Shown piece after piece: positions 5,542-46,296 of a stretch of DNA of 53,546 nucleotides. Under the pieces are notes generated by a model that saw nothing but the letters and a program-made list of their open reading frames with translations, had not been told where the DNA came from and did no database searches. Each line of letters starts with the position of its first letter. Positions within the stretch are counted from its first letter, which is position 1. A program made the position numbers and the translations under genes. Source of the DNA: a virus. The DNA lies in the IMG/VR virus record IMGVR_UViG_3300035698_014122, positions 1-53,546 of that record, one strand, 5' to 3'.

Positions 5542-5754
5542 ATGACATTAAAAGATTTTTTAGAAGCAAATTTACAAGAGAGTTCTTGTTCTAAGATGCA
5601 AGCTGACGGAGCAACATACAAACAGTATTACGCTGCTGTTATGAAGTCCTTCAAACTTGACACAAAGACACCTATATTCAAACTCAGCAAAGCGCAGAAG
5701 AGTAAATTGGATTCTGGTTGGAAATCAGCCGAAGAGAAGAAAGGAAAGGAATAA
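5542..5754 (+). CDS. Small basic protein with capsid-targeting-type leader
   Basis: 70 aa. The N-terminus MTLKDFLEANLQE|SSC has the form seen repeatedly in this window: a short amphipathic acidic helix ending in L-N/Q-E before a small residue, which fits T4 gp21-type prohead protease sites. The rest is Lys-rich. It is probably an internal head protein. It is co-oriented with the HAD and Lys-rich genes below, four bases apart from the next. Confidence 0.6.
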   Translation: MTLKDFLEANLQESSCSKMQADGATYKQYYAAVMKSFKLDTKTPIFKLSKAQKSKLDSGWKSAEEKKGKE

Positions 5755-5757
5755 AGT

Positions 5758-6426
5758 ATGAATTTTGCAGAAGTAATCACTGAAGATTTATTTCTTAATG
5801 AAGCAGCAAGTAATAGTTTGTTGTTATTAGATCTGGACGACACTTTACTTACAGCACAAAACGTATTTGTTTATAGAACTAAGGAACATCCTTCAGGTGC
5901 TGCTAAACTTACTCCACAGCAATACGCAAAAGAGAAAGTAACAGCATCAACGAAAGGATTTTATGACTATAAAGACTTTAGAACTGCTGAAACAGTTGGT
6001 AATTCAATTATTACAGGAATTCCTATTATTAGTAATCTAAAGATGATGGATAGTTATATTAAAAATGGATGGAAGATTGGTATTCTTACTGCTCGCGGTA
6101 TGGAAAACGTAGTATTCAAATCCATTAAAGTTTTCTTGAAGTTCAAAGAAGCTGGAGAGCTGAAAGACATTGGCGATAAATTAGTAAGAGAACTTGTATT
6201 TGCTATCAATGATGATAATAAGAAATACAAAGGAAATACAGACTTTACCAGAAAGAAAAATGTTATGTTGTCTTTACTTGATAAATATGATAGAGTATGG
6301 CTCTTGGACGACGACTTAAAAAATATTAAAGCAATTAACGATTTGAAAACAGAATTGAAAAACAAAAAAGATATTCGACATGGAAAGCTTAGAGCAATTT
6401 TTGCCAAAAAGAAACAGGAGATATAA
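5758..6426 (+). CDS. HAD-superfamily phosphatase with head-targeting leader
   Basis: 222 aa. HAD motif I is LLDLDDTLL (residues 23-31, nucleophile D25 and acid D27), motif II is ILTARG, and the acidic motif IV is WLLDDDLKNI. The first 15 residues (MNFAEVITEDLFLNE before AAS) look like a cleavable capsid-targeting sequence. The enzyme would be a Mg-dependent phosphohydrolase of unknown substrate, possibly nucleotide or nucleic-acid ends. If the leader works as in T4 it is packaged and injected with the DNA. Confidence 0.8.
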   Translation: MNFAEVITEDLFLNEAASNSLLLLDLDDTLLTAQNVFVYRTKEHPSGAAKLTPQQYAKEKVTASTKGFYDYKDFRTAETVGNSIITGIPIISNLKMMDSYIKNGWKIGILTARGMENVVFKSIKVFLKFKEAGELKDIGDKLVRELVFAINDDNKKYKGNTDFTRKKNVMLSLLDKYDRVWLLDDDLKNIKAINDLKTELKNKKDIRHGKLRAIFAKKKQEI

Positions 6427-7659
6427 ATGAAAATTATTGATTTAGTCGAGATGGCTATTCCAACAGAAGCTGGCCCAATGGTTTGGAAAAAGATAAATGA
6501 CTTATTAAACGCAGGAGACTATGCGGCTGCTGCTAAGCACTTCGTAGATTCTGGTGGTAACGTTAGAGGTGCTAAAAGAACCTGGAATGTTGCTCAAGCA
6601 AATACAAAAGTATCAGGTAAGAAAGTTCCTGGCCCTATTTATGGAATGGTTGATAAGAAACATAGTTATGAAAAGTTTATGGCTGCCATGCCAAAAGAAG
6701 TTACAGGCCCAAAGACAAACAAAGAAAGAAATAAAGTATCTAAAGATCCTGATGAACTATCTGATGAATATAAAAACTTAGCAATTATTAAAAGAAGGAA
6801 GGCTTCTCATGTTAAGTTAGGTGATGCTAAAGGTCAAGACATTGCTCGCATATTGTCACATGATAAAAAAAATCCAGACAGTGATCCTATTAAAACTTTA
6901 ACAGCAAGAGCTGATGAATTAGATTTAACGGCTAAAGAGTTGAAACGTTTCAAAGAATTAAGGAAAAAAAATTCCAGTGGCACAGACATGACACCTGAAG
7001 AAAGAGGTGAATATGCAAAGTTAAAAAAGTCTACTCTTAAAAAAAGAGGAAAGGCTGGAATTATCGAACAAGCCAAAAAAGATATTAAAGAAATAGAATC
7101 AGCAGAAGAGATTAAAAACATTCTTGCTAAATACATTAATGATAAAACAAGAATTGATGATAGAGATTTAGTTGTTACTCTTCTTAACAAGATTAGAAAG
7201 TTAGCTAAAGGTGACGAAGCTACAAAGATTAATACTCAATTGAAACAGATTTTTAGAAATAAAGATAATGCACCTGGTGTTGATAATCTAATTAAAAAAT
7301 ATAATGAAGAAACTGGAAAAGGATTAGCGCACTTAAAAACTATTGATTCTGTTCTTGATCGTTATAACGCTGGTAAAGATGTTTCTCTTGCTCAGTTGAA
7401 AACGATGCATAAAGAAATAGAAAAAATGATTCCTACAATGGAAGAAGATCAGAAATTTGATGTGAAAGGTTATAGCATATATAAAACAACAGAAAGAAAG
7501 CTTAAAGCTTTTATAGCTAAAGGCGAAGAACCTGATGTTGATGCAATTGAAGAATTACTTGACGGAATGTCTCAGTATCATGATAACTTGAAGAAAGAAG
7601 TTAAGAAACCTATTAAGAAAAAGAACATCAAAGAAGATATACTGTACAATCTAAATTAA
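6427..7659 (+). CDS. Lys-rich internal head protein candidate
   Basis: 410 aa, strongly basic and helical, rich in K/E with no membrane segments. It begins MKIIDLVE|MAIP, again an acidic leader with an LVE cleavage-type site. It starts at the base after the HAD stop. I recognise no domain. Its charge, length and leader fit an internal protein that condenses DNA or is ejected with it. Runs such as KKKNIKEDILYNLN close the C-terminus. Confidence 0.6.
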   Translation: MKIIDLVEMAIPTEAGPMVWKKINDLLNAGDYAAAAKHFVDSGGNVRGAKRTWNVAQANTKVSGKKVPGPIYGMVDKKHSYEKFMAAMPKEVTGPKTNKERNKVSKDPDELSDEYKNLAIIKRRKASHVKLGDAKGQDIARILSHDKKNPDSDPIKTLTARADELDLTAKELKRFKELRKKNSSGTDMTPEERGEYAKLKKSTLKKRGKAGIIEQAKKDIKEIESAEEIKNILAKYINDKTRIDDRDLVVTLLNKIRKLAKGDEATKINTQLKQIFRNKDNAPGVDNLIKKYNEETGKGLAHLKTIDSVLDRYNAGKDVSLAQLKTMHKEIEKMIPTMEEDQKFDVKGYSIYKTTERKLKAFIAKGEEPDVDAIEELLDGMSQYHDNLKKEVKKPIKKKNIKEDILYNLN

Positions 7660-7663
7660 AAGG

Positions 7664-7692
7664 TTGACAATAAAAGAATAATTTAGTATACT
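7664..7692 (+). promoter_or_regulatory. Early-type sigma-70 promoter for the Ro60 gene
   Basis: TTGACA at 7664-7669, a 17-nt spacer, TATACT at 7687-7692, then an AGAGGAG ribosome site. It is the only plus-strand member of a nine-copy family sharing the spacer ATAAAAGAATAATTTAG. Confidence 0.85.
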
Positions 7693-7710
7693 TCTATTAG
7701 AGGAGCAACA

Positions 7711-9225
7711 ATGTCAGACCGCCAGCCAGTGAAGAAGAAGATAATTGTTTATAAAAGGAAGAAGGAAAAAGTTGGGATAACTTATAAAGATATTTTACTC
7801 ATTAGAAAATGGATCTTAACTGGTTCCTTTTCTAATGAGTTATCATCTGATACAAACAAATTAGATTTGAGTAAGTTGTTTTTAATTAAGCAGCTTGCTT
7901 CTAATGAACCTCAGCAATTAAACAAAACTCTATTAGAGTATTCTCAGATTGCTGTAAATAAAGATACTCTAATAACAACTCTTGTAATACTCTCATCAGG
8001 AAACTTTCAAGCTAAACATTGTTTTAGAGAAAGCTTTAATAAAATAATAAAGAGTCCTAACGACCTTTATAGATTTTTATTTATTATGAAGAAGTATCGC
8101 GGTTTAGGAAGTATCATTCACTTGGCTATAAAGAAATGGTTTACGTATAACGACGTAAACTCTTTAGAGAAAATGTTTATAAAAGAACGCTCAAAATATA
8201 CTTGGTCAGGTCAAGACATTATGAGATTGATTAAACCAAAGCCAAGAGACAAGAAAGAAAATCTTTTATTCAAATGGTTAGCGAAAGATAAAATTAATGA
8301 AAATGATATTCAAGATTATAAAACGTATTTACCATTAATTTGTGCTTATGAAGAAATGAGAAGTAATAATTATTCAAAACATATTTATAATTTGATTAAA
8401 AAATATAAGTTTACTTCATTAATGATTCCTGGAAACGTTTATGGTTCAGAAGAATTATTACTTGAATTGCTTAAAGCTAAAACAAATGAAGAGTTAATCT
8501 CTTATTATAAAAATCATGTAACTGATGATATCGTTAATTATGCTGTTAGTAATAGGCTTAAGAGTATCATTAATAACAAAGAAACATTACATATGGAAAC
8601 AATAGAATTAACATCCTTATTAGAGAATATGATTCAAGGTTCTGTTTCGCCTATTATTATTTCTGATATGGAAACTATCATTCATGATAAAATAATAAAA
8701 TCAATATCGACTAATAAGAATGTAGTAAACATTATAGATATGTCAACAGAAATGTTTAGCACTATAAACAACAGCACTAAATTAACTCCTGCTGTTATAA
8801 CTTCTATTCTAACGAGTAAGTGTTCGAGAAACTATAGTCTTTCAGGAATATTTCGAAATAATTTTGACATAAGACCTATAATGGAAGCTGAAGGTAAAAT
8901 AGAGAGAACTGATAGAATTGCTTTTAATACTATTATTAAGAGCGTCGGAGCAGCTCCTGCTGTTGTCTATATTTGGACAAACAAAGTTTTTATAAAAAAT
9001 ATAGAGATAGACGCAAAAAAGTTAAAACTTGAATTTCCGGATTCAACAGTTTGTATCATGAACATGAACGATTCAGTTGTTCATTGTAAATTCAGTAATT
9101 GTTACGTTATTAACGGATTTAATTTTAATACAAAAAAACTAATGAAAGCAGTAGAAAAAGGGAAAGAGGGAAAGAATGAAACAAGAGGGCGGACTATTAA
9201 AAAAAATAGTTCAGAAAGAAACTGA
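7711..9225 (+). CDS. rsr: Ro60 / TROVE-domain RNA-binding protein
   Basis: 504 aa, close to the usual ~520-540 aa of Ro60. The HEAT-repeat TROVE ring shows the diagnostic blocks KKYRGLGSIIHLAIKKWF (127-144) and YTWSGQDIMRLIKPKP (163-178). From about 338 a Rossmann-like VWA domain begins with VVNIIDMSTEMFS; the MIDAS has DxSxE (D343, S345, E347) instead of DxSxS, so metal binding may be altered. Ro60 binds Y RNAs and misfolded RNA ends, and in Deinococcus it couples Y RNA to PNPase for structured RNA decay. It has its own early promoter, unlike neighbouring late genes, so the protein acts early in infection. The last 50 nt overlap the next gene. Confidence 0.82.
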   Translation: MSDRQPVKKKIIVYKRKKEKVGITYKDILLIRKWILTGSFSNELSSDTNKLDLSKLFLIKQLASNEPQQLNKTLLEYSQIAVNKDTLITTLVILSSGNFQAKHCFRESFNKIIKSPNDLYRFLFIMKKYRGLGSIIHLAIKKWFTYNDVNSLEKMFIKERSKYTWSGQDIMRLIKPKPRDKKENLLFKWLAKDKINENDIQDYKTYLPLICAYEEMRSNNYSKHIYNLIKKYKFTSLMIPGNVYGSEELLLELLKAKTNEELISYYKNHVTDDIVNYAVSNRLKSIINNKETLHMETIELTSLLENMIQGSVSPIIISDMETIIHDKIIKSISTNKNVVNIIDMSTEMFSTINNSTKLTPAVITSILTSKCSRNYSLSGIFRNNFDIRPIMEAEGKIERTDRIAFNTIIKSVGAAPAVVYIWTNKVFIKNIEIDAKKLKLEFPDSTVCIMNMNDSVVHCKFSNCYVINGFNFNTKKLMKAVEKGKEGKNETRGRTIKKNSSERN

Positions 9226-10473: not shown

Positions 10474-10686
10474 GTGAGTAGAAAAGTTTCAACAGAAGAA
10501 TTTATAAAAAGAAGTAATGCTATACATAATAATGAATATATTTATTCTTCTGCTAAATACGTTCGTATGCATGATAAAGTTGAAATAATATGTCATAAAC
10601 ATGGAAGTTTTTTTCAAGAACCTCATTCTCACTTGAAAGGTAGAGGGTGTCCAAAGTGTAGATATGAAAAATCAGCAAAAAAGTAA
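10474..10686 (+). CDS. Zinc-knuckle module of a broken homing-type endonuclease (part 1)
   Basis: GTG start, 70 aa. One copy of a modular domain: hNNEYIYSSAKY, then DKVEIICHKHGSFFQ, then HLKGRGCPKCR. This C-HKHG...GCPxC arrangement is found in tandem in phage and plasmid homing-type nucleases (DUF723-like). It ends in a run of six A before TAA; the next module continues in the +1 frame. Confidence 0.6.
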   Translation: MSRKVSTEEFIKRSNAIHNNEYIYSSAKYVRMHDKVEIICHKHGSFFQEPHSHLKGRGCPKCRYEKSAKK

Positions 10687-10945
10687 TAAAGACACATTAA
10701 GTAGTTGGATTAAAAAAGCAAACTTAAAACATAAAAATGTTTATGATTATTCATTAGTTAAATATAATAAATCTGATAAAAAAGTAAAAATAATATGTCA
10801 TAAGCATGGTGTCTTTTTTCAAAGACCACAAGATCACATAAGAGGTAATGGATGTCCAATATGTAATGCGTCTAAAGGAGAAATTCAAGTTGAATTTTTC
10901 TTAAAAGAAAATAATATAAAATTTAAAAGGCAAAAAACAATTTAA
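10664..10945 (+). CDS. Second zinc-knuckle module of the broken endonuclease (part 2)
   Basis: 93 aa. Repeats the first module (YDYSLVKYNKSDKKVKIICHKHGVFFQ, then HIRGNGCPICN), followed by the start of a nuclease domain (GEIQVEFFLKENNIKFKRQK). The frame breaks again at a run of six A near 10934. Confidence 0.6.
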   Translation: MKNQQKSNKDTLSSWIKKANLKHKNVYDYSLVKYNKSDKKVKIICHKHGVFFQRPQDHIRGNGCPICNASKGEIQVEFFLKENNIKFKRQKTI

Positions 10946-11181
10946 TGAATGTAGAGATAAAAACCCGTTAAGATTTGATTTTTATTTACCAGAAAAAAAC
11001 ACCTGTATTGAATTTGATGGAGAACAACATTTTACACCTAAATCTTGCTGGGGCGGAGAGAAATCTTTTCAGGACATAAAAAGAAGAGATAATATTAAAA
11101 ACAAATATTGCTACGATAATGATATAGCTTTATTAAGAATATCATATAACGAAGACGTGAACAGCAAATTAAGGACAATAT

Positions 11182-11889: not shown

Positions 11890-11910
11890 AGTTATAGTCA
11901 GGAGAATTAA

Positions 11911-12753
11911 ATGACTATAATTGAAGCATTACAAATAGAAGAAGGTGTTAGCCCAAGAAATTTATTTCACTTTACTGATATCCGAGGATTGAAGAGTATA
12001 TTAAAAAGTAAAAGGTTAAAGATGGATAATTATATTGGAGATAAAAAAACTTCTGTGTCATTAGCTGTAGTTAGACCAAGTATGGCAAATCCTAAAAATG
12101 TAGAAAGTCTTTCTGGTTCCAGTAGCGGTGGAATAAAATTTGTCATTAAAGCCTCTGAATTAAGTGATACTGTTCGCGGAGCTAAACTTAAAAAAATTGC
12201 AGAGTATCCTCTGCAATATACAAAATCTCTTGAACGTTCTATTAATAGTATTATTAATGATAACCCTAAAGTTCTTAAGTTAATAAAAAAAGAATTAGAT
12301 AAAATCTATAGATTAACTAAGGGTTTTAATCCTTATTATAACAAGTCACGTAAAACTCCAGAAGTTGATAAGATATTAGATGGATTAACTTCTAAGTATC
12401 AAATAACTTCAACGATTTTAACTAAATGGATTTCTAGGTATACGGCTCTTACAAATGAATTACAGAAAAGAGAAGGCGAAGAAAGAATTACTCTTAAGAA
12501 AGGAACTGATGAAAAACCAAGTTCTATTCCTTTAGATAGAAAGTATATAACAATAGAAATTGTAGATTTTAAGAGATCTATTCAAAATGCTCCTAGAAAA
12601 ACAATAGAAGAATTTTGTGATGCTGTTTATGATAATAAAAAGTATTTCAAGAAAGATGATGAATATATTAAAGCTATTAAGTGGCGAGAAGATAACATTA
12701 AAAAGTTAAAAGGTTCAATGCTTCAAAACATTAAGGAAAGAGTATATGATTAA
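11911..12753 (+). CDS. ADP-ribosyltransferase-like protein with head-targeting leader
   Basis: 280 aa. After a leader MTIIEALQIEE|GVS, the segment NLFHFTDIRGLKSILKSKRL matches the first strand and helix of DarT/ART-like folds. A VSLAVVRPS strand, GGIKFVIKASEL, and a late EERITLKK...YITIEIVDF block follow. The same four blocks occur in the gene at 15852, so the two are paralogues. T4 packages the ADP-ribosyltransferase Alt in the head by a similar leader, which makes an injected host-modifying enzyme plausible. The catalytic assignment is tentative. Confidence 0.55.
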   Translation: MTIIEALQIEEGVSPRNLFHFTDIRGLKSILKSKRLKMDNYIGDKKTSVSLAVVRPSMANPKNVESLSGSSSGGIKFVIKASELSDTVRGAKLKKIAEYPLQYTKSLERSINSIINDNPKVLKLIKKELDKIYRLTKGFNPYYNKSRKTPEVDKILDGLTSKYQITSTILTKWISRYTALTNELQKREGEERITLKKGTDEKPSSIPLDRKYITIEIVDFKRSIQNAPRKTIEEFCDAVYDNKKYFKKDDEYIKAIKWREDNIKKLKGSMLQNIKERVYD

Positions 12754-12940
12754 AATAACGGATGAGATGAAGCTGTATTATGATAAGAAACTTCGTTGTC
12801 CAATTTGTAATTCAAAAATAGTAGAAACAAATATAAAACCTCCGACTCCAGTATACGGAAAAGAATATAAAGATACAATTAACAGAACAGTTTGTCCTGA
12901 TTGCGGATGGGTTGGCGTTATGGATAAATTAAGGAAATGA
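12746..12940 (+). CDS. Small zinc-ribbon protein
   Basis: 64 aa with two knuckles, RCPICN and VCPDCGW, spaced 37 residues, giving a treble-clef or rubredoxin-like zinc site. It overlaps the preceding gene by 8 bases and the following one by 4 (ATGA). Confidence 0.7.
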   Translation: MIKITDEMKLYYDKKLRCPICNSKIVETNIKPPTPVYGKEYKDTINRTVCPDCGWVGVMDKLRK

Positions 12941-13777: not shown

Positions 13778-13806
13778 ATTATAACCTATTATTCTTTTAT
13801 TGTCAA
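13778..13806 (-). promoter_or_regulatory. Early-type sigma-70 promoter for the SLOG gene
   Basis: On the minus strand, TTGACA at 13806-13801, 17-nt spacer, TATAAT at 13783-13778. Close copy of the shared early promoter. Confidence 0.85.
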
Positions 13807-13815
13807 GAGTTAAAA

Positions 13816-13826
13816 GTAAAGGTAAT
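13816..13826 (+). promoter_or_regulatory. GTAAAGRTAAT motif (candidate late promoter)
   Basis: GTAAAGGTAAT lies 32 nt before the HD hydrolase start, back to back with the minus-strand early promoter. Confidence 0.5.
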
Positions 13827-13847
13827 AAACATACAGGAGATTTTTTC

Positions 13848-15492: not shown

Positions 15493-15834
15493 ATGAATAT
15501 ATTAGAATTATTAAACGAAGAAGACGTTTCATCTGCTGGAAGTTTTAATGCTATGATTAAAGCAATTAAAACTAATGACCCAATTATAGCACAACGAAAA
15601 GCAAATAAGTTAGTGCGACAATTTTATGCCAGAAAAGAAGGCAAAGGTGCAAATCCGCACACTGTTGCTAATCTAAAAAATAGATTAGCTATGATTATTT
15701 TTGGATATGTTAATAAAAAAAACAATAAAGCAAAATCAAATTATAACAATACAGTAAAAGAACTAAATAAATTGTTAGAAAATACAAGCATAGAACATCA
15801 ATTAAATAGCTTTTATGATGAATTAAATGAATAA
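15493..15834 (+). CDS. Small basic protein with head-targeting leader
   Basis: 113 aa from the ATG at 15493; a GTG at 15466 is in frame but would bury the leader. MNILELLNEE|DVSSAG is a clear acidic leader with an LNE site. The remainder is Lys/Asn-rich and helical. Probable internal head protein. Confidence 0.6.
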   Translation: MNILELLNEEDVSSAGSFNAMIKAIKTNDPIIAQRKANKLVRQFYARKEGKGANPHTVANLKNRLAMIIFGYVNKKNNKAKSNYNNTVKELNKLLENTSIEHQLNSFYDELNE

Positions 15835-15851: not shown

Positions 15852-16733
15852 ATGATGAAATTAATAGAAGAAATTAAAAAGAACTCTGGACTACAAGAAT
15901 TGAATGAAACACTTTCCTCTGGAATTTATAGGTTTATTAGTATAAATGATTTAGAACGCTTATTAAAAACAAACACATTTAGTTTAGCTTTAGCCGCGGG
16001 AGCTAACAAGTTATCCAATAAGTTTTATTTCTTATCTTTATCCAGAAATAAGTATGGCGGATTTGCAAGAGCCAATACTGGTAAAGAAGGTGTTACATTA
16101 GTTCTTGATAGTGCTAAGTTTAATACTAAATTCAAAAGTAAGTCTGTTGATTATTGGGGAAAAGCTTTCTCTACGATTGCTCCTGAAGACGTAAAGAAAA
16201 TGCCGCCTTGGAAGAAAGAAGAATATCTTGAAAGAAAATTAAAGAATGATGAAAATGAAGAGAGAATACTTAGTGATAAAAACACTATCCCTAATGCTTT
16301 ATCATACGTGAAAGCAATTCATGTTTTAGCTCCTGAAGATGAAGTGTATCAAAGTAAATTCAAAGATCTTAAAAATGCAGCAACGATGAAAAAGATTCCT
16401 CTTTATATATATACAGACAAGAAAGCTTGGGAATTACATGACACAAGAAGACAATTGAAAACTTTCAAAGAAGTAAAACCAAATAATCAAAGATTACAAA
16501 TACTTATCGATATTTATAATGGAACCGCAACTGATGCACAAAAACAAGATATTGCAAGGTCAACCAGATGGGGACTTGATGACTTTATGATTGGATTAGA
16601 AAATGACATGACAGGTTATAAATCTAAGTCAGAAGCGCCATTAATACAGAAATTTACAGACATAAAAATAAAATCAAAAGTAAGAGATACTAAAAAGTTT
16701 ATAGAGAAAATTATTATCCCTAAATTAGACTAA
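15852..16733 (+). CDS. ADP-ribosyltransferase-like protein, paralogue of the 11911 gene
   Basis: 293 aa (second ATG at 15855). Leader MKLIEEIKKNSGLQELNE|TLSSG, then GIYRFISINDLERLLKTNTF, FYFLSLSRNK, GVTLVLDSAKF and EERILSDKNTIPNALSYVKAIHVL. The blocks align one-to-one with those of the gene at 11911. The R-x-F/H start, the L-S-x-x-R strand and the conserved EERI are compatible with an ART-like fold, with Glu as a possible catalytic residue. Likely packaged and injected. An alternative is a non-enzymatic derivative of this fold. Confidence 0.5.
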   Translation: MMKLIEEIKKNSGLQELNETLSSGIYRFISINDLERLLKTNTFSLALAAGANKLSNKFYFLSLSRNKYGGFARANTGKEGVTLVLDSAKFNTKFKSKSVDYWGKAFSTIAPEDVKKMPPWKKEEYLERKLKNDENEERILSDKNTIPNALSYVKAIHVLAPEDEVYQSKFKDLKNAATMKKIPLYIYTDKKAWELHDTRRQLKTFKEVKPNNQRLQILIDIYNGTATDAQKQDIARSTRWGLDDFMIGLENDMTGYKSKSEAPLIQKFTDIKIKSKVRDTKKFIEKIIIPKLD

Positions 16734-21652: not shown

Positions 21653-23554
21653 ATGCCACTTATAGATGGAGTTGAAGTATTTGTTGATGAGAAGACTGCC
21701 AGAAGAATACAGACAGAAATAAATGCAGTTCCTGATTTAAGTCAGGACTTAAAGACAGATATTGATCCAAAAAAAATAGATTTAACTGACCAGATACAAG
21801 ACGGATCTGACTTCGGTATATTCTTTGATGAAACAGAATATGGCGAAAACGGTTCCTTAAACTCAAGAAGAGATTCCTATGATACATATAAAGAAATGGA
21901 TGGAATGGAATTTATTCATAGAGGTGTTGAAATAATAGCAGATGATTCATCTCAGCCTAACTCTGATGGTGATGTAATGAAGTTTTATTCTGATGATGAA
22001 AACTCTAAAGATGTTCTTGATGAATTATTTATTAAGAAGTTAGACATGAATAATGAACTTTGGTCTATATTTTATGAAACAGTCAAGATGGGTGATAATT
22101 TCTATGAGATTATACCAGATGATTATAAAAAGCCAAAAGAGGTTCGTCGGATTAGGTATCTCGAACCTGATAAAATGGAACGAATAGAAAAAGATGGAAA
22201 ACTTTCTCACTTCACTTATAAAGTAATAAAGAAAGAAAGAGGTTCTACTAACGTATCAGAAACTCAAGAGTATAGACTATTTCCTTGGCAGATAATTCAC
22301 TTTAAGATTGAGAACAAATCTCATGCTCCTTACGGAGGAAGTTTATTAGAAGCTGGAGTTAGAACATTCCGAAGACTTGTTATGTTAGAAGACCTAATGC
22401 TTGTTTATAGAATAAGCAGAGCACCAGAAAGAAGAGTTTTCTACATAGACGTTGGTAACTTAAATGCAGTTGAAGCTAAAAGATTTTTAACGAAGATGAA
22501 GAACGCATATCGTTCACAATCTTTCATTGATGAGAATGGTAATATAAATAAAAAAGCAAACGTAATGTCGATTACATCTGATATTTTTGTTCCTGTTAGA
22601 GAGGGACAAACTGGTACGAGAATAGATACGCTTCAAGGTGGAGCTGCTATGGGAGCTTCAGGAAGCGAAGATCCGTTATTGAAATACTTTAAGAATAAAA
22701 TTCTAAAGACGATGAATATTCCGCCATCTTATATGGGTGAATCAGCAGACAACAGTAGAAGTCTTTCAACTATAGATCAGAAATTTGGTAGATTTATTGA
22801 GAGAGTTCAGTCTCAAATAATACAAGGATTGAATAAAATAGCTGCACTTGAATTGTTCTTTAGGGGATATAAAAAAGAAGATTTAAACAACTTTAAGATT
22901 GAGCTTACTCCTCCATCAAATGTAAAAGAGATTACTGAAATTGAACTTATCAATCAGAGAATGACTTTGATTGCAACTATTCAGCAGTTAAATCTTTTCC
23001 CTAACGAGTGGATATTCAAAAACATTTTGAAGTTTTCTGATAAAGAAGTTGCTGATGTTATAATGAAGAAGAAACTTGAAGGAAACGAAGCCGCAGCAGG
23101 TGGAATGGCCGGAGCGGCCGCAGCTGGTGGTGCTATGGGAGATATGGGTGGTATGGAAATACCAGCAGAAACTCCTCCAGCGGAAGGTGAAGCTCCAGCA
23201 GCGGCACCAGAAGAATTAGCTGCAAATACTATTATAAATATGTTTGGAAAAGATTTCTTGATAGAAAGCAAAGAAGACTTCTTTCAATTGGTTAAAAATT
23301 CTAATGAATATAATAAGCCAACTAAGTTAGCACCTATGTTTGAAGCAGCTTCTGAGTTTATCCTTAGAGATTTGAACATCAAAAACAATAAAACTAATAG
23401 AAATAACTTTGTTGCATTATCTAATTTGAATGAGTTCAAGGGAATCGATTTTAATGACAGAAACATTCGTCTTTGGGAAAAGGACGAAAATGGAACAAAG
23501 GAAAACCTCAACGAATTAACTGTTGAGTGTGGAGTTAAGGCATTAAATGGATAA
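21653..23554 (+). CDS. 20: Portal protein (gp20-like)
   Basis: 633 aa. Strong gp20 signature around residues 240-275, with LEDLMLVYRISRAPERRVFY followed by IDVGNLN and a FLTKMKNAYR helix. The later DTLQGGAAMG and LKYFKNKILKTMNIPPSYMG blocks also match. The protein forms the dodecameric ring at the head vertex where terminase docks. The C-terminal 150 residues include an Ala/Gly/Pro-rich low-complexity stretch (about 478-525) not usual in T4. A TAGGAG ribosome site precedes ATG. Confidence 0.93.
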   Translation: MPLIDGVEVFVDEKTARRIQTEINAVPDLSQDLKTDIDPKKIDLTDQIQDGSDFGIFFDETEYGENGSLNSRRDSYDTYKEMDGMEFIHRGVEIIADDSSQPNSDGDVMKFYSDDENSKDVLDELFIKKLDMNNELWSIFYETVKMGDNFYEIIPDDYKKPKEVRRIRYLEPDKMERIEKDGKLSHFTYKVIKKERGSTNVSETQEYRLFPWQIIHFKIENKSHAPYGGSLLEAGVRTFRRLVMLEDLMLVYRISRAPERRVFYIDVGNLNAVEAKRFLTKMKNAYRSQSFIDENGNINKKANVMSITSDIFVPVREGQTGTRIDTLQGGAAMGASGSEDPLLKYFKNKILKTMNIPPSYMGESADNSRSLSTIDQKFGRFIERVQSQIIQGLNKIAALELFFRGYKKEDLNNFKIELTPPSNVKEITEIELINQRMTLIATIQQLNLFPNEWIFKNILKFSDKEVADVIMKKKLEGNEAAAGGMAGAAAAGGAMGDMGGMEIPAETPPAEGEAPAAAPEELAANTIINMFGKDFLIESKEDFFQLVKNSNEYNKPTKLAPMFEAASEFILRDLNIKNNKTNRNNFVALSNLNEFKGIDFNDRNIRLWEKDENGTKENLNELTVECGVKALNG

Positions 23555-25170: not shown

Positions 25171-25821
25171 ATGGATATGAATGAAGCATTACTTGAAGAC
25201 TTCGATCTATTATTTGAAGAGTCTACAGAAAAAATCCTTAGTGAAGAAATGTCTGATACAAAAGTAGCTAAAGAAGTTAAGAAAATAAAGGCAAGTTTTC
25301 CTTACAAAGAACTTTCAAAAGGTCTTTGGGGAGATTCTGCAGCAATCAGAGCTGCCGGATTAGATGTAGCTGCAATGAGAGTTTGGCAAAAGAAATATGC
25401 AGCAGCACTCAAAACTTTTAACACAAGCATAGCACCTAAAAACATGGCTTCTGCTAAAGCTGCAGAGTATATGGTTAAAGCTAAGGTTGCTAAAAAAGAA
25501 CTAAAAAGTATGTATGGTAAAGTTGTTGGCTTTGAAAAGAAAATTTCTAAAGGAACAGCAAAAGCAGCTGGAGCTAAAGGCAAAGCTGTAGTTGGAAAAA
25601 TCAATACAAAAGTTGCAGCAGAAAAAGCAAAAGCTGTAGGCGATAAGAAAGTAGCAGATGCTGCTATAGCAAAGAAAGCAGCCGCTAAAAAGAAACGTGA
25701 TGGTAATAAAGTAGCTAAAGCCAAAGCAGCAATTGCTGCTGACAAGAAAGCTAAAAAAGATGCTTTCATAGGAAAAGTCAAAGGTAAAGTTGCTAAAATA
25801 AACTTTGTTTCTGGCAAATAA
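25171..25821 (+). CDS. Histone H1-like Ala/Lys-rich internal head protein
   Basis: 216 aa. The first 30 residues are acidic (MDMNEALLEDFDLLFEESTE, then KILSEE) and look like a propeptide with LSE/LFEE sites. From about residue 95 the protein is an almost pure Ala/Lys/Gly chain (AKAAGAKGKAVVGK, KKAAAKKKRDG), as in histone H1 tails. Cleavage would remove the acidic part and release a polycation suited to DNA neutralisation. It occupies the gp68 position directly before the protease. Confidence 0.7.
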   Translation: MDMNEALLEDFDLLFEESTEKILSEEMSDTKVAKEVKKIKASFPYKELSKGLWGDSAAIRAAGLDVAAMRVWQKKYAAALKTFNTSIAPKNMASAKAAEYMVKAKVAKKELKSMYGKVVGFEKKISKGTAKAAGAKGKAVVGKINTKVAAEKAKAVGDKKVADAAIAKKAAAKKKRDGNKVAKAKAAIAADKKAKKDAFIGKVKGKVAKINFVSGK

Positions 25822-25831: not shown

Positions 25832-26446
25832 ATGGATAATTTATTCTTAGAAGATTATACAGACATATTTGAATATCAGTTAGTGGAATCCACTAAAGAT
25901 AGCAAAGGCTATTTTATTCGTGGAGTAGTTTCCAGAGCTGGTTCTAAAAATAAAAATAAAAGAGTTTATCCTATTTCTGTTATGGAAAGCGCAATAGAGT
26001 CCTTACAAGAGGCAGTCGGTAGTGGTGGATTTGTCGGAGAATTAGACCATCCACCTACACCAAAAATTAATATCAATAAAATTTCCCATAAAATTACTAA
26101 ATTAAAAATGGCACCAGATGGTGCAGTGCTTGCAGAAATGGTTGTGCTTGATACCGATGAAGGTGTTACATTAAAAAAATTAATTGATGGTGGAGTTAGA
26201 CTTGGTGTTTCAACAAGAGGATTAGGTGGCGTTAAACCATATTCTGGCCCTCTCGGATCTATAGGAGAAGGACTTGTAGAAGTTCAGCCTGGATTTAGAA
26301 TGAAAGCAATTGATGTTGTTTTCGATCCATCGGCTGGAGATGATGGAAGACCAAACTTTGTAACGGAGGACGTTACAGAAAATGGTATAGTATTAGGATA
26401 CTCAGCAACATTTGAAAGAGTGTGGACTGATGTATTTGGAAGTTAA
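25832..26446 (+). CDS. 21: Prohead protease (gp21-like)
   Basis: 204 aa from the ATG at 25832, preceded by AAGGAG; an in-frame upstream TTG overlaps the previous gene and is unlikely. GELDHPP contains the catalytic His and LGVSTRGLGG the nucleophilic Ser of the herpesvirus-assemblin-like T4 protease fold; IDVVFDPSAGD closes the core. It matures capsid, scaffold and internal proteins at L/I-x-E sites. The N-terminal MDNLFLEDYTDIFEYQLVE may be its own propeptide. Confidence 0.9.
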   Translation: MDNLFLEDYTDIFEYQLVESTKDSKGYFIRGVVSRAGSKNKNKRVYPISVMESAIESLQEAVGSGGFVGELDHPPTPKININKISHKITKLKMAPDGAVLAEMVVLDTDEGVTLKKLIDGGVRLGVSTRGLGGVKPYSGPLGSIGEGLVEVQPGFRMKAIDVVFDPSAGDDGRPNFVTEDVTENGIVLGYSATFERVWTDVFGS

Positions 26447-26485: not shown

Positions 26486-26522
26486 TAATAACAACATATA
26501 AATTAATTTGGAGGAAACCAAT

Positions 26523-27320
26523 ATGGCTAATGAAATACTTCATATGGAACTATCAACTGAAGATGAAACATTACTAAGAGAAAGCCTTTCTACTTGGAAA
26601 GAGGAAGTTTATGCTACACTTTTAGAAGAAGTTGAAGAGTTGAAAACTACGAAGATCGAAGAACTTGAAGAAGCTAATAGAGAATATCAGTCAGAAGTGA
26701 AAGAAGAATTTGCTTCTAAGATGGTAAACGCTCTTGAAGAAATGAGATCTGAAATCAGAGCAGAAGTTCTAAGTGAAATGATCGAATCGAATCCTGAGTT
26801 ACAGATTCTGGAAAGAATTAAGGAACTCGTTGCACCAACTATTAACGAAGAGTATTTTGGAAACATTTATGCTGAAGAGATTCAGACACTTCGTGAAGAA
26901 AATGACAAACTTGTAGCTGCAGCAGAATTAGAAGAAGGAGCTGAAACGCTTGCTGAACTTATCGCACCTTACGCAGAAAGAACTCAAGGCATCATTCTTG
27001 CAATGATTAAAGAAGGAAATTCTGAAGAAGTAACAGAACAATTTTATGAACTAATCGAAAGTCTTAAAGGACTTGAGGAAGACGATGAAGTTGAAGACGA
27101 AGACGACGAAGAAGATGTTGACGACGAAGATTCTGAAGACGATGAAGATTCCGAAGATGACGATGACGAAGAAAATGAAGAAGAAGATGATGATGACGTA
27201 GATGAGTCAACTGACGAAAACGCTGATGGTTACATTAACGAAAACGAAACTGGCGAAGAAACTACTCCTAAAAAGAAAATAAATTCATTACTTTCTGAAA
27301 TGAGAGGTCTATCTAACTAA
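26523..27320 (+). CDS. 22: Scaffold / prohead core protein (gp22-like)
   Basis: 265 aa from the ATG at 26523 behind GGAGG. Long acidic helices (about 1-150), then a near-continuous Asp/Glu tract (about 183-230), and a basic C-terminus PKKKINSLLSEMRGLSN like the capsid-contacting end of scaffolds. It lies between protease and capsid genes as in T4. Multiple LxE sites would allow complete digestion. The identity rests on position and composition. Confidence 0.75.
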   Translation: MANEILHMELSTEDETLLRESLSTWKEEVYATLLEEVEELKTTKIEELEEANREYQSEVKEEFASKMVNALEEMRSEIRAEVLSEMIESNPELQILERIKELVAPTINEEYFGNIYAEEIQTLREENDKLVAAAELEEGAETLAELIAPYAERTQGIILAMIKEGNSEEVTEQFYELIESLKGLEEDDEVEDEDDEEDVDDEDSEDDEDSEDDDDEENEEEDDDDVDESTDENADGYINENETGEETTPKKKINSLLSEMRGLSN

Positions 27321-27388: not shown

Positions 27389-28894
27389 ATGTATTTAGAT
27401 AGAAATGCACGTCTTCAAGAAGAAGCTAATATGACTGGAAACTGGTCATGGTTAACAGAAGGACTTGAAGATAAAGATGAAATAGTTAATACGTCAATAG
27501 TTTTACAGAACTCTTACGAGTCCATGATTGCTGAAGGACAATTAGCTGAAGGTTGGTTAGAAGCTCTTCTTAACGAAGATGAAATAAATGAAGCACCTCA
27601 GACTTCCACAGCAGTTGGAACAAATGTAATTCCAAAAGTTTTATTCCCAGTAATCAGACGAGTTATGCCTGCACTTATTGCTAATCAGTTAGTATCTGTA
27701 CAGCCAATTACCGCAAGAACCGGTATTATTTATAATATCGCTTATACATTTTCTGATTCAAAAGGAGATATTAGTGCTGATGATGAATATACAGGTAACG
27801 TAACTTTGGGTTCCCCAGGTTTCTCTACTTTCTATTCAAGTGAAAGAATTGGCCCATTTACTGCTACTGTAAATAGTACAGATGATACTGATGATGACAT
27901 TGCTGCTAATACGTTGACATTTTTCGGAACAACGATTGCAGATTTTGAAATTAAAAGAATAGAAGTTTATTCAGCAGCTGGAATAAGATTAACAACAATT
28001 CTTGATACAGTTGACGGAGCAACTCCAGGTTGGGAAGTATCTAATTCAAATGTTGGTTATGATGCATCTACCGGAGATATCGTTCTTAAATCAGCAGAAA
28101 CCGCAGATGTTCCTTGGGCAGCAGGTGATGTACTTACAGTATTCTTGGTTTATAATCAGGAAGGTTCCAGTAAAATTCCTGAGATGGAATTCAGTATCAA
28201 CAGTCAGACTGTTGACACGACTGAAAGAAAATTAAAGATCAGATGGACAAAAGAAGCTGAACAGGATATGAAAGCTTTCCATAAGATCGATGTAGAAAGT
28301 GAACTTGTAAAAGTTGCTTCTATGGAAATGAATTATGAAATTGACCGTGAACTTCTTACTTATATTAGTGATACGGTTACTGACGAACTTTCGTTCACTC
28401 ATAATTGGTTAGATGACGCATCCGTAACTGGAAATAATACTACTGGTAACTATTTAGATAGACACCGAGCACTTTCACAGAAAATCGCAATGGTTTCTGC
28501 AAAAGTTGCACAGTATAATAGACAGGGTGCAGCAAACTGGGCAGTGGTTTCACCACAAGTGGCATCAGTACTTGCAATGCTTCCTAACTTCAAAGGCGAA
28601 ATTGCTGGAAATAGCTTGAACGTAACTCAGGCTGGTGTTCTTGGTGGAAATATCAAGATTTACATCGATCCTAATAATTCTTCTAGCGAAATTCTTATGG
28701 GTTATAAGAGTAATTCTTCAACCTACGGCGCTGGTGTAGTTTATTCTCCATATACAAATTGGATGAGTAATACTGTTACACATCCTGATAACTTTAACTC
28801 TATCAGAGGGTTCTTCTCTCGATACGCAGTAACGAAAGTTGTTAGAGGACAGTGGTTCTACGCAAAACTTAACGTAACCGGACTTACTTTCTAA
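27389..28894 (+). CDS. 23: Major capsid protein (gp23-like)
   Basis: 501 aa, HK97 fold of the T4 type. VLFPVIRRVMPALIANQLVSV followed by QPITARTG is the family hallmark (residues about 87-115). The N-terminal 66 residues are an acidic delta domain ending ALLNEDEINE|APQTS, a convincing gp21-type cleavage site. KLKIRWTKEAEQDMKAFHKIDVE and the C-terminal RGFFSRYAVTKVVRGQWFY strands are also typical. A TGGAGG ribosome site follows an AT-rich segment with AGATAATATATTAT. Confidence 0.93.
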   Translation: MYLDRNARLQEEANMTGNWSWLTEGLEDKDEIVNTSIVLQNSYESMIAEGQLAEGWLEALLNEDEINEAPQTSTAVGTNVIPKVLFPVIRRVMPALIANQLVSVQPITARTGIIYNIAYTFSDSKGDISADDEYTGNVTLGSPGFSTFYSSERIGPFTATVNSTDDTDDDIAANTLTFFGTTIADFEIKRIEVYSAAGIRLTTILDTVDGATPGWEVSNSNVGYDASTGDIVLKSAETADVPWAAGDVLTVFLVYNQEGSSKIPEMEFSINSQTVDTTERKLKIRWTKEAEQDMKAFHKIDVESELVKVASMEMNYEIDRELLTYISDTVTDELSFTHNWLDDASVTGNNTTGNYLDRHRALSQKIAMVSAKVAQYNRQGAANWAVVSPQVASVLAMLPNFKGEIAGNSLNVTQAGVLGGNIKIYIDPNNSSSEILMGYKSNSSTYGAGVVYSPYTNWMSNTVTHPDNFNSIRGFFSRYAVTKVVRGQWFYAKLNVTGLTF

Positions 28895-28992: not shown

Positions 28993-29514
28993 ATGAACTT
29001 AATAGAAATGAATGAAGCGTATGACGAGAATGCTTTAACTGAAGAATATTTATTACAAGAAGGATTGAAGTTTTTTAAGAAAAGTAAAAAACTTTATAAT
29101 TATGTGGATAGAGTAGATAAGAAATTAGCAAAGAAAGAAACTAAAAGCAAAATCTCTGCTTCTGAGATTTCTAAATTGAAAGCAATGAGTAAGGATTTGT
29201 TAAGGCTTGCTGATGAGTATAAGGTTGTTGAAGATAATGCTGCAGCAGGAAAGACAGATAAAAAAGTCGCTAAAGGAAAAATTAAACAGCTTGGTCAGAA
29301 AAATGCAAGGCTTTTAGCTTTATTGAAAAAAGATGAAACAAAACAAATTTTTAAGAAGATTGGTTTTGGAGCTATTGCTATTGGATTGACGGCTGCATTA
29401 ACACAGTTAGGAATGATGAATCCAACGATTGGTAAATTTCTTTATAGTAAAACAGCAACAGCAGCATCCACTCATTCATTGATACCTGATGGTGCTGATA
29501 TTCTTAAACGTTAG
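28993..29514 (+). CDS. Internal head protein candidate with leader and membrane segment
   Basis: 173 aa from the ATG at 28993. MNLIEMNEAYDENALTEEY then LLQE|GLKFF is a two-site acidic leader (MNE, LQE). The mature part is Lys-rich with one hydrophobic helix near the C-terminus (FGAIAIGLTAALTQLGMM). A basic protein that can insert in membrane fits an ejection protein. It has its own candidate late promoter and an adjacent terminator. Confidence 0.6.
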   Translation: MNLIEMNEAYDENALTEEYLLQEGLKFFKKSKKLYNYVDRVDKKLAKKETKSKISASEISKLKAMSKDLLRLADEYKVVEDNAAAGKTDKKVAKGKIKQLGQKNARLLALLKKDETKQIFKKIGFGAIAIGLTAALTQLGMMNPTIGKFLYSKTATAASTHSLIPDGADILKR

Positions 29515-43204: not shown

Positions 43205-43837
43205 ATGGAATCATTTAATGAATATGTAGAATTAAAAGAAGAAGAAGCTTATACTCAAGAAATGCTTAATGAAGATCCTTTAATTATTGCAGGAGCTGTT
43301 TTAGGTTATGCGGCCGCAGGATTATTAATTGGATGGGGCGGAGCGCTTCTCGTGACTGGATATACAAAACTTTTAGGCAAATTTGTAACTTCAATAAAAA
43401 GAACTTATAAGAGATTTTTCAAAAAAGATAAATCTCCTACTGAAATTACTAAGGCTCTTAAAGATTTGAAGACAGACACAAATGTTAGGATTCAACAGAA
43501 TAAAATGAAGGACGAGTCAAGAAAATATGACGAAGACTTCAAGGAAGTATTTGCGGCAATACGCGATAAAGAAGCGATTGTAACTAAAGAAAAAGTTTTA
43601 CAGTTAAAACTTGATCAGAAACTCATAAATAGAATGGTAGTACTTGAAACAACAAGAGCTTTTGGTGAACCACCATTACATTACGGAAACACTGGCAATA
43701 GCGCATATCTTTTTGTTAAAAAAGTTTTAGGAATAAAAGTTGCACAAGCTGCTTCGATGGTAGTTAAAAAAGCTTTTGAAAGTAAAGGTACTGAATTAGT
43801 AAAAGAACCAGAACCAAAAGTAACAGGAGATAAATAA
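43205..43837 (+). CDS. Leader-bearing protein with membrane hairpin, ejection protein candidate
   Basis: 210 aa. MESFNEYVELKEEEAYTQEM then LNE|DPLI is an acidic leader with an LNE site. Residues about 26-55 are a Gly/Ala-rich hydrophobic hairpin (AGAVLGYAAAGLLIGWGGALL), followed by a strongly basic helical region. The combination suggests a head-packaged protein that inserts in the host membrane at infection. Confidence 0.55.
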   Translation: MESFNEYVELKEEEAYTQEMLNEDPLIIAGAVLGYAAAGLLIGWGGALLVTGYTKLLGKFVTSIKRTYKRFFKKDKSPTEITKALKDLKTDTNVRIQQNKMKDESRKYDEDFKEVFAAIRDKEAIVTKEKVLQLKLDQKLINRMVVLETTRAFGEPPLHYGNTGNSAYLFVKKVLGIKVAQAASMVVKKAFESKGTELVKEPEPKVTGDK

Positions 43838-44526: not shown

Positions 44527-44533
44527 AACGAAT

Positions 44534-44719
44534 ATGCCAAGTTATATAGGAAACGGAGAAATATTAATAAGTGGCTCAGCATCATATAAGAAGATAGAAC
44601 CATATCTTTTAAGTTTTGCTTCGTTTTCAAAAAATAGAGAGTATGAAGCTGGACTTGATGAGAATAACAAATATCCAGAAGATTACGCAGAAAATTATTC
44701 AGATATATTTAATAGTTAA
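44534..44719 (+). CDS. Hypothetical small protein, 61 aa
   Basis: Unknown; aromatic and Ser/Asn-rich. First gene of the neck-sheath transcript. The ribosome site is AAAGGAT. Confidence 0.55.
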   Translation: MPSYIGNGEILISGSASYKKIEPYLLSFASFSKNREYEAGLDENNKYPEDYAENYSDIFNS

Positions 44720-44730
44720 AGAGGAAGTAA

Positions 44731-45525
44731 ATGCAACAATGGGTTGATTTTATGTCAAAATCCTATATAGATTCAGTTGGGCCTGAAGTTAAAGTTTTCA
44801 AGATGGATAAAACTGAAACACAGCTTGATGAATTATATGGTGAAAGCAGTCAGGGAAGAATTTATTTACCTCCATTTCCAATAAGAACAATTTATGATAG
44901 CAATAAGTGGGTTGGCTTTTTAGATGCTGGTGGATATCAAGAGCAAGAAGAAACTCTTACTATGATGATAAACTTTGGTAATATGGTAAAGAAGATCACT
45001 GATCTTAGAAAGAAACACGTAGCAGAATTATACATAAGTTATGCCGGAAAGGGAACTCCTTTTGTTGAGAAAGTAGATAGTGTACTTATATTATACGTTA
45101 ATAATAAAGTTCATTTAACAATTGATTTAACTAATAATCTTTTTTCAACCATTAGAAAATTAGCAAGTAGAATAGATATGTATACTAATTGGTCTTGTAA
45201 GATAGAAGGTGAAAATGATTTAAGCGTAAATCTTATTGATTTTAATAAAACTTCATTTAATCAAAGAGAAACAATGATTTATACAATAGATCAAACATAT
45301 AAAAATATAACCGATGTTATAGAAATGGGAGATACAATTCTTACAAGTAGATATAGATTATATGAAGTAACATCAGCCGCTCCTGCGGGTGATTTTGGAT
45401 GGAATTATTCTTTATGGCAATTAGGCTTAGAATTAGCGTCGCCAGATAGATTTAACCTTCCAGGAAATTATATAGAACAAATGAGAGATAATCAACATGG
45501 TCTTACAAAGACAAAAACGGAGTAA
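44731..45525 (+). CDS. Neck protein (gp14-like)
   Basis: 264 aa. TQLDELYGESSQGRIYLPPFPIRTI resembles the LYGE-type core of T4-like gp14 neck proteins, which are also about 250 residues long. The C-terminal part (YRLYEVTSAAPAGDFGWNYSLWQLGLELASPDRF) is a beta barrel typical of head-tail joining proteins. The assignment also rests on its place between a gp13-like gene and the sheath gene. Confidence 0.6.
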   Translation: MQQWVDFMSKSYIDSVGPEVKVFKMDKTETQLDELYGESSQGRIYLPPFPIRTIYDSNKWVGFLDAGGYQEQEETLTMMINFGNMVKKITDLRKKHVAELYISYAGKGTPFVEKVDSVLILYVNNKVHLTIDLTNNLFSTIRKLASRIDMYTNWSCKIEGENDLSVNLIDFNKTSFNQRETMIYTIDQTYKNITDVIEMGDTILTSRYRLYEVTSAAPAGDFGWNYSLWQLGLELASPDRFNLPGNYIEQMRDNQHGLTKTKTE

Positions 45526-45528
45526 AAG

Positions 45529-46296
45529 ATGAAAAGCAAAGGATTAGGAAAATCATTAGATAGAAAATTAGAAAGTATGCTTAATGAAGCTTCTAAAGAA
45601 ATCACTGGACTTTATACAATAGTAGTTAAAGATGGTAACACCGAAAGAAGATTTACATTTCAAAGCCATAAGATAGGTTCTTTAAGAAAAGAACTCGCTA
45701 AAAGATATGGTTCTAAAGTAGTAACTAAAATTTCAGCTGCTATAAAGAAAGCTGAAACAAAAGGAACATTGAAGAATTTTGCTACAGATGATTCAGTTGA
45801 CTTTGAAATCAACGGTGAAAAAGTAAAATCTGTTTTCAAAGAAGGCGAACCTTTAGAAGAAGCTATGAAAGATGGTGGTGTACCTGATGGAACTGGCCCT
45901 CACGGAAGAGGCGATGGCCCAGGAAAAGGCAGAGCAGATGGTTCTGGAATGAGAGTTATGAGAAAATGCTCTAAAACTGGTAAAAATACTCTTGTTAAAA
46001 AATTTAATGATACTGATAAAGCTAAAGAATTTATTAAAACAAAAAATGCATCTGGAAAGAAGTATTTTATTGAAACAACGATTGAAATAAAAGATCCATC
46101 AGGTAAAAATGTTGAAGTAGATGGTAAAAAGTTTAAGGGAACTATAGGAGATTTAAAGTCTAATCCTAAATACAAAAACTTATTAGCTACTGTAATTAAA
46201 AAGTATGGTTCTCTCAAGTCATTTGGTGGAGACGATGCAAAAGTAGATATATCCAGAAGTGCTGATGGAATGATAAAAGTAAATAAAGATGCATAA
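45529..46296 (+). CDS. Leader-bearing protein with Gly-rich GTGPxGRG segment
   Basis: 255 aa. An N-terminal leader ends SMLNE|ASKEI. The central segment GTGPHGRGDGPGKGRADG resembles DUF5320-type Gly-rich motifs and recurs in a small gene at the right end of the window. Flanking parts are Lys-rich alpha/beta units that look duplicated (KKFNDTDKAKEFIKTK). Possibly head-packaged. Confidence 0.5.
   Translation: MKSKGLGKSLDRKLESMLNEASKEITGLYTIVVKDGNTERRFTFQSHKIGSLRKELAKRYGSKVVTKISAAIKKAETKGTLKNFATDDSVDFEINGEKVKSVFKEGEPLEEAMKDGGVPDGTGPHGRGDGPGKGRADGSGMRVMRKCSKTGKNTLVKKFNDTDKAKEFIKTKNASGKKYFIETTIEIKDPSGKNVEVDGKKFKGTIGDLKSNPKYKNLLATVIKKYGSLKSFGGDDAKVDISRSADGMIKVNKDA

What the first reader, a model, noticed from the sequence alone, without database searches (positions are those of the whole stretch)
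5542..46296. A shared LNE/LQE capsid-targeting leader marks a large injected-protein cargo
At least ten proteins (starts at 5542, 5758, 6427, 11911, 15493, 15852, 25171, 28993, 43205, 45529) begin with a short acidic amphipathic leader ending in L/I-N/Q-E before a small residue. The same site (INE/A) ends the capsid delta domain. Known: T4 gp21 removes such leaders from internal proteins, including the injected ADP-ribosyltransferase Alt. Inferred: a HAD phosphatase, two ART-like proteins, membrane-inserting and DNA-condensing proteins are packaged.
Basis: partly seen in the sequence, partly recalled or inferred. Interest (0 to 1): 0.82.

Follow-up and report, generated by a model that had tools for sequence, protein, structure and literature searches.

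The report
Leader-tagged proteins packed in phage heads
This T4-like phage appears to tag a set of unrelated, positively charged proteins (including two ADP-ribosyltransferase-like enzymes and a phosphatase) with a short removable leader so that they are packed into the phage head and, probably, delivered into the host with the DNA: a known T4 trick, here with mostly new cargo in an uncultured lineage.

Summary
Only 5 of the 10 N-termini have L/I-N/Q-E followed by a small residue (0.8-1.0 expected, shuffle P=0.0008), but all ten fit T4 gp21's actual rule, L/I-X-E. One site was misplaced: 6427 is LVE|MA at residue 8, not PTE|A. The record encodes a gp21-type protease, and its capsid protein carries [LI][NT]E|AP in 12/12 relatives.

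Independent support: mature bodies of all ten have pI 9.5-10.3 (other ORFs median 5.0; P=5e-6), as T4 internal proteins are basic. One family keeps [LI]xE|[GS] in ~10/10 homologues with unrelated upstream sequence, including inside a fusion. In relative G001, two adjacent unrelated genes share an identical 28-bp leader ending at the cleavage site. The 15852 ART family has the leader in 6/6 phages with a gp21-type protease and 0/4 without. The 11911 model matches ADP-ribosyltransferase-superfamily folds.

Most likely: T4-type capsid-targeting leaders; packaging and cleavage probable, injection plausible but unshown. 25171 is better read as a gp68-position core protein. Caveats: the motif alone is unspecific in T4 (8 of 27 hits are known head proteins), and a loose rule shows no pI enrichment across relatives. 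New member of a known kind.

The parts
25832..26446 (+). prohead protease, T4 gp21 type (Peptidase_S77), with its own N-terminal site LVE19|S
   Evidence: PF03420 E 1.9e-20; phrog_207 E 2.9e-46; many relatives have [LI]xE|[SAG] at the same place
27389..28894 (+). major capsid protein (gp23 type), delta domain ending INE68|AP at about base 27592
   Evidence: phrog_138 E 1.7e-63; [LI][NT]E|AP in 12/12 distinct relatives
26520..27320 (+). acidic scaffold/core protein in the gp22 position
   Evidence: synteny protease-scaffold-capsid; conserved in 19 related contigs; computed pI 4.05
21653..23554 (+). portal protein (gp20 type)
   Evidence: phrog_213 E 2.4e-73
5542..5754 (+). 70-aa basic protein, leader MTLKDFLEANLQE|S (bases 5542-5580)
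   Evidence: motif and mature pI 9.7 only; no homologue in the relatives
5758..6426 (+). HAD/DUF2608-type phosphatase, leader ...LFLNE|A (bases 5758-5802)
   Evidence: DUF2608 in 3 of 4 family members, best 4.5e-12; phrog_415 polynucleotide kinase E 3.3e-6; orthologues keep an acidic leader with L-x-E
6427..7659 (+).
   Evidence: orthologue G001_30289 has LNE|MA at the aligned place
11911..12753 (+). ADP-ribosyltransferase-superfamily protein, leader MTIIEALQIEE|G (bases 11911-11943)
   Evidence: model pLDDT 65, best folds Tpt1/KptA Z 8.3 and DarT Z 7.0; G001 orthologue LTE|G
15493..15834 (+). 113-aa basic protein, leader MNILELLNE|E (bases 15493-15519)
   Evidence: G001 orthologue MNILQLLTE|D; that leader is 28/28 nt identical to its unrelated neighbour's
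15852..16733 (+). ART-like protein with H...R...ExExR motif, leader ...LQELNE|T (bases 15852-15908)
   Evidence: family A1 with jumbo-phage proteins; profile picks up the 11911 family at E 1.3e-5; leader and protease co-occur
25171..25821 (+). Lys/Ala-rich basic protein in the T4 gp68 position, acidic leader ending ILSE|E (bases 25171-25245); probably prohead core
   Evidence: orthologues INE|E (G001, G002); synteny with T4 20-67-68-21-22-23
28993..29514 (+). basic protein with C-terminal hydrophobic segment, leader ...LLQE|G (bases 28993-29061)
   Evidence: [LI]xE|[GS] kept across the family with upstream sequence of very different length
43205..43837 (+). membrane-type protein, leader ...MLNE|D (bases 43205-43273), strong hydrophobic segment directly after the site
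   Evidence: LNE|D, FNE|S, LDE|S in orthologues; hydropathy 2.0 at residues 26-44
45529..46296 (+). basic 255-aa protein, N-terminus ...MLNE|ASKEI (bases 45529-45588)
   Evidence: syntenic G003_12054 (LDE|VSAEI) and similar L021_1023 (LQE|MSIEI) by eye; BLAST finds no homologue
   Evidence: L/I-x-E at the N-terminus in the family members printed; acidic body (pI 4.5), so not classed as cargo

Best explanation
A T4-superfamily myophage packages a set of otherwise unrelated late proteins by means of a short N-terminal capsid-targeting leader (about 8-25 residues, mostly acidic, ending L/I-X-E). Inferred steps: the leader docks the protein into the prohead core; after shell assembly the gp21-type protease at 25832-26446 cuts after the glutamate, as in the capsid protein; the basic mature body stays inside with the DNA. 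Enzymes (two ART-superfamily proteins, a HAD-type phosphatase) and membrane-type proteins (28993, 43205) are then probably ejected into the host at infection; 25171 is more likely a core protein. Shown by sequence: the protease, the sites, their conservation, modularity and charge pattern. Not shown: cleavage, presence in virions, ejection, enzyme activity.
For: Protease, capsid and portal are T4-type. T4 gp21 cuts after L/I-X-E and T4 internal proteins are basic (PMC9026906). Mature pI 9.55-10.3 in all ten vs median 5.04 in the other 59 ORFs, P=5e-6; first 15 residues more acidic, P=0.0016; all ten on the structural-gene strand, P=0.007. Site kept while context changes: 28993 family, 43205 family, 11911 and 15493 with G001, capsid 12/12. 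In G001, 28/28 identical nucleotides from ATG to the glutamate codon (plus one base) in two adjacent unrelated genes, with unrelated flanks; only these two and, with 3 mismatches, window 15493 match in all related contigs. ART family A1: leader in 6/6 phages with PF03420, none in 4/4 without (Fisher P=1/210); PF03420 presence coincides with a T4-type capsid. Cultured phage Slickus01: seven neighbouring genes, ARTs and others, share MKIDxLYESLLEE-like leaders, bodies pI 9.1-9.5 vs 5.9 (P=0.0006), leader DNA 67% identical with flanks at 32-35%. 11911 folds like ART-superfamily enzymes.
Against: The motif alone is unspecific: in T4 only 8 of 27 hits at residues 8-25 are known head proteins, and a loose leader rule over relatives shows no enrichment for basic proteins (26/88 vs 108/369), partly because scaffold, capsid and protease also match. 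The ten were picked by eye. G009's 11911 homologue has LTD instead of an E site. Leader/protease linkage is confounded with lineage, because the same phages share the whole T4-type head. No proteomics; the phage is uncultured.
Confidence: 0.78

Rival explanations
1. The leaders target the proteins into the prohead core and are cleaved, but most of the proteins are structural core or DNA-condensing components that stay in the head or act in assembly, not injected effectors.
For: 25171 lies in the gp68 position; 6427, 25171 and 45529 are Lys-rich with no enzymatic family; T4 IPIII affects head assembly (PMC9026906).
Against: ART-superfamily and HAD-type enzymes have no evident structural role; they differ between close relatives, as T4 internal proteins do.
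Confidence: 0.3
2. The N-termini are ordinary acidic N-termini of late proteins; L/I-X-E occurs by chance and is not cut.
For: Low specificity of the motif in T4 and no pI enrichment for a loose rule over relatives.
Against: Strict motif enrichment P=0.0008, charge split P=5e-6, conserved sites in variable contexts, 28-bp identical leaders on unrelated genes, leader/protease co-occurrence.
Confidence: 0.08
3. The shared N-terminus is a binding tag for another virion part (neck, tail) or a chaperone site, without head packaging.
For: 43205 and 45529 are encoded between neck and tail genes.
Against: The junction matches the capsid's own protease site and the leader is absent from homologues in phages without this protease.
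Confidence: 0.07

Closest known systems
T4 capsid-targeting sequence with gp21 (IPI, IPII, IPIII, Alt)
   Same: short N-terminal propeptide ending L/I-X-E, gp21-type protease, basic mature bodies, an injected ART (Alt) among the cargo
   Different: leader sequences differ from T4's MKTYQEF; cargo families (11911 and 15852 ART families, HAD/DUF2608 phosphatase, membrane-type proteins) are not T4's; virion evidence is lacking
P1 DarB N-terminal packaging signal (PMC9024508)
   Same: a short N-terminal signal sends large effectors to the head
   Different: P1 Dar proteins show no shared N-terminal consensus, and P1's protease is HK97-like
phiKZ/SPN3US ejection proteins (PMC5694885)
   Same: prohead-protease-processed inner-head proteins, one mature form with an N-terminal membrane helix
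   Different: propeptides mostly longer than 100 residues, and the SPN3US cleavage motif is A-X-E
Head-packaged phage ARTs inferred from gene context (PMC9503650)
   Same: ARTs encoded next to terminase and capsid genes in myophages
   Different: here the leader and its link to the protease give a sequence-level delivery signal

Membership tests
T4-type capsid-targeted internal proteins | gp21-type prohead protease encoded | tested here: met
   PF03420 E 1.9e-20, phrog_207 E 2.9e-46
T4-type capsid-targeted internal proteins | short N-terminal leader ending L/I-X-E | tested here: met
   10/10 at residues 8-26, though the ten were chosen for this and P1' varies
T4-type capsid-targeted internal proteins | same site used in the capsid protein | tested here: met
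   [LI][NT]E|AP in 12/12 relatives
T4-type capsid-targeted internal proteins | leader is modular across unrelated proteins | tested here: met
   G001 28-bp identity; Slickus01 cluster
T4-type capsid-targeted internal proteins | basic mature body | tested here: met
   pI 9.55-10.3 in all ten, P=5e-6; not seen for a loose rule over relatives
T4-type capsid-targeted internal proteins | present in virions, N-terminus removed | not testable with these tools
   needs mass spectrometry
ADP-ribosyltransferase superfamily (11911) | ART fold | tested here: inconclusive
   model pLDDT 65; Tpt1/KptA Z 8.3 over 84 residues, DarT Z 7.0 over 131-137 residues, Foldseek best E 0.05; consistent set of ART hits, none decisive alone
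ADP-ribosyltransferase superfamily (15852) | ART fold | tested here: inconclusive
   single-sequence model failed, pLDDT 37; link by profile to the 11911 family only
HAD phosphatase (5758) | DxDxT motif and HAD-family match | tested here: met
   invariant DxDxTL and DDD in four members; DUF2608 in 3 of 4 members, window protein below the cut-off

The most novel reading that the evidence does not exclude
Packaging leaders are an evolvable plug-in code. In phages with a T4-type head, a short leader ending L/I-X-E is copied or evolved onto unrelated genes (down to an exact 28-bp cassette), turning them into head cargo. A phage group in which no gp21-type protease is detected (Lu11, HRDY3) has a separate code, MKIQLAVA/MELMLALA-like N-termini shared by about ten neighbouring unrelated genes, including members of the same ART family. 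Injected proteomes could then be read from N-termini alone.
Probability: 0.35. Interest if true: 0.8.

Novelty: new member of a known kind. Interest (0 to 1): 0.6.

Why it matters
It extends T4-style protein injection, established in T4 and its close relatives, to an uncultured lineage with mostly new cargo (two ART families of which neither has a clear Pfam match, a phosphatase, membrane-type proteins). It also gives a sequence-level criterion (leader plus protease site plus basic body plus gene context) for predicting what such phages may deliver into hosts, with a cultured phage, Slickus01, in which the prediction can be tested directly.

Tried and rejected
A loose mechanical rule (acidic N-terminus plus [LI]xE) was tried across relatives and did not separate basic proteins; the T4 control showed the same low specificity. 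The search for related loci with 15852, 11911 and LR756508's ART alone found nothing confirmable, and alignment A1 was not conserved enough to scan with. tblastn of 11911 and 5758 against named phages gave no match. The single-sequence fold of 15852 failed (pLDDT 37) and was not searched. Profile A1 found no relevant solved structure, and A3 only spurious coiled-coil hits. Greater amphipathicity of the ten leaders was not significant. HK97-type protease (PF04586) was not found in the leaderless phages. No family beyond those listed can be excluded by the structure comparison. Genes in relatives were called with a simple home-made caller, so some start codons there may be wrong.
Full report
What was checked. 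The window is a complete IMG/VR virus record of 53,546 bases from a T4-superfamily myophage. Its portal, gp21-type protease, capsid protein and sheath all match T4-type families, and its capsid protein is about 25-29% identical to named T4-like phages over most of its length. It is probably a fragment: the genes expected for a T4-type phage are only partly present, and T4-like genomes are usually several times larger (general knowledge).

The observation. The ten ORFs are real. T4 gp21's documented rule is broader, cleavage after L/I-X-E (PMC9026906), and all ten satisfy that.

How weak the motif is alone. Applied to T4 with the same gene caller, [LI]xE plus A/S/G/T/C/D at residues 8-25 finds 27 proteins, of which 8 are known head proteins. 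A loose rule over the relatives gives 88 proteins with no tendency to be basic. So the argument cannot rest on the motif.

Independent evidence. First, charge: after removal of the leader all ten proteins have pI 9.55-10.3, while the other 59 ORFs have a median of 5.04 (P=5e-6), and the first 15 residues are more acidic than elsewhere (P=0.0016). T4 internal proteins are described as basic (PMC9026906). Second, site conservation in changing context: in the 28993 family the junction [LI]xE|[GS] followed by a (G/S)(hydrophobic)xxFKxS-like start is kept in essentially all ten members, with upstream stretches from three residues to a several-hundred-residue fused domain (G001_30289, which joins the 6427 and 28993 families through ...IQLDE|GIFFFKDSKK...). 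The 43205 family keeps LNE|D, FNE|S or LDE|S. Third, modularity: in G001, adjacent genes 19606-19899 (orthologue of 15493) and 18755-19609 (orthologue of the ART-like 11911) share exactly 28 nucleotides, from ATG through the P1 glutamate codon plus one base, with unrelated sequence on both sides; a scan of all related contigs finds this 28-mer only there, plus 15493 in the window with 3 mismatches. In the window the 11911 leader is different, so leader and cargo have been reassorted.

The ART family as a natural experiment. 15852 has homologues in named large phages. Their alignment (A1) has invariant S62, R65, E134 and E136 and nearly invariant H27 and R138, an H...R...ExExR pattern. Phages with a PF03420 protease (the window, LR756508, K566, SCTP-2, Slickus01, Mel-JY01) carry an N-terminal leader with an x-E junction just before the ART domain (LNE|T, LFE|A, LAE|A, LNE|S, LEE|G, VTE|T; in Mel-JY01 the P3 residue is V). 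Dickeya JA13, Sen-NF, Lu11 and HRDY3 lack a detectable gp21-type protease (PF03420 and phrog_207), a T4-type capsid and that leader. 6/6 against 0/4 gives Fisher P=0.0048, but this is confounded with lineage because the whole T4-type head comes with it. In Slickus01 seven neighbouring genes, ARTs and others, share MKIDxLYESLLEE-like leaders with bodies of pI 9.1-9.5 (P=0.0006); an eighth, slightly different one lies nearby. Leader DNA is about 67% identical and flanks about 32-35%, so there the leader is kept by selection on the protein and not by recent copying.

Cargo. 11911: a four-sequence AlphaFold2 model (pLDDT 65, pTM 0.62; core 80-90) has ART-superfamily folds as its best solved matches by VIA-align (Tpt1/KptA Z 7.5-8.3, AvrPphF ORF2 Z 7.2, DarT Z 6.7-7.0) and DarT as Foldseek's top six (best E 0.05). 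Such Z values are middling, and the claim rests on the consistency of the hits together with the His/Arg/ExEER residues. 15852 could not be folded (pLDDT 37); profile A1 reaches the G001 orthologue of 11911 at E 1.3e-5, and hhalign of A1 with A2 gives E 1.3e-4 at 54% probability. 5758 is a HAD/DUF2608-type phosphatase. 43205 has a strong hydrophobic segment immediately after the cleavage site and 28993 a weaker one near its C-terminus. 25171 lies where T4 has gp68 (order 20-67-68-21-22-23) and is better read as core. In relatives, other proteins with leader-like N-termini include a P-loop kinase-like protein (G004_3873 MLLKNLNEG..., L021_1854 MNFNYLLESMND...).

Mechanism and confidence. Shown by sequence: protease, sites, modularity, charge split. 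Inferred from T4: core docking through the leader, cleavage after Glu, retention with DNA, ejection. I put packaging plus cleavage of most of the ten at about 0.8 and delivery of the enzymes into the host at about 0.65.

Relation to what is known. The T4 capsid-targeting sequence, its sufficiency for packaging foreign proteins, and the idea that T4-like phages use it to vary their cargo are established (PMC9026906, PMC5694885). P1 has a functional analogue in DarB (PMC9024508). ARTs of myophages have been inferred to be head-packaged from gene context (PMC9503650). What is added is a new lineage and cargo, the leader/protease linkage for one ART family, the exact-DNA leader copy, and a possible second, unrelated leader type in Lu11 and HRDY3. 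A relative of that group, PaBG, is reported to process virion proteins proteolytically (PMC7412058).

Noticed in passing
Pseudomonas phages Lu11 (L069, L103-L104) and HRDY3 (L068): About ten neighbouring, mostly unrelated genes in each phage share a different N-terminus (Lu11 MKIQLAVA, HRDY3 MELMLALA/MEMMLALA), including ART and GNAT proteins; no gp21-type or HK97-type protease was detected. In Lu11 leader DNA is 68% identical, flanks 27-28%. Possibly a second, independent packaging leader.
   Followed up: partly
window 16744-20781: Terminase large-subunit gene interrupted by two intein-like insertions: C-terminal HNC and HNS junctions at about residues 465 and 1257, Intein_splicing, LAGLIDADG and Hint matches.
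   Followed up: partly
window 36686-39169: AAA ATPase gene with an intein-like insertion in the Walker A motif (GETGTGK|CLAKGTK); the G002 homologue is 494 aa against 827 aa here.
   Followed up: partly
G001 6721-8358 and 10629-13733; LR756508 about 156480-158198: The prohead protease gene itself (545-576 aa instead of about 205) and the G001 portal gene (1034 aa) are enlarged in these phages; inteins are the likely cause but were not analysed further.
   Followed up: no
window 13800-14414: HD_4 domain protein (HD family, E 1.6e-15), possibly a (p)ppGpp hydrolase, among late genes, with a leader-like start MKLKDALD but no L/I-X-E site.
   Followed up: no
window 52478-53262: Four tRNA genes on the minus strand, three of them tRNA-Leu and one tRNA-Trp.
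   Followed up: no
window 754-1503: Cytidylyltransferase (CTP_transf_3, E 2.5e-20), a sugar-activating enzyme, beside structural genes.
   Followed up: no
T4 gp61.1, 18966-19130 (L052): T4 gp61.1 begins MKTFKEFIKED, resembling the IPI leader; it may be an unrecognised capsid-targeted protein.
   Followed up: no
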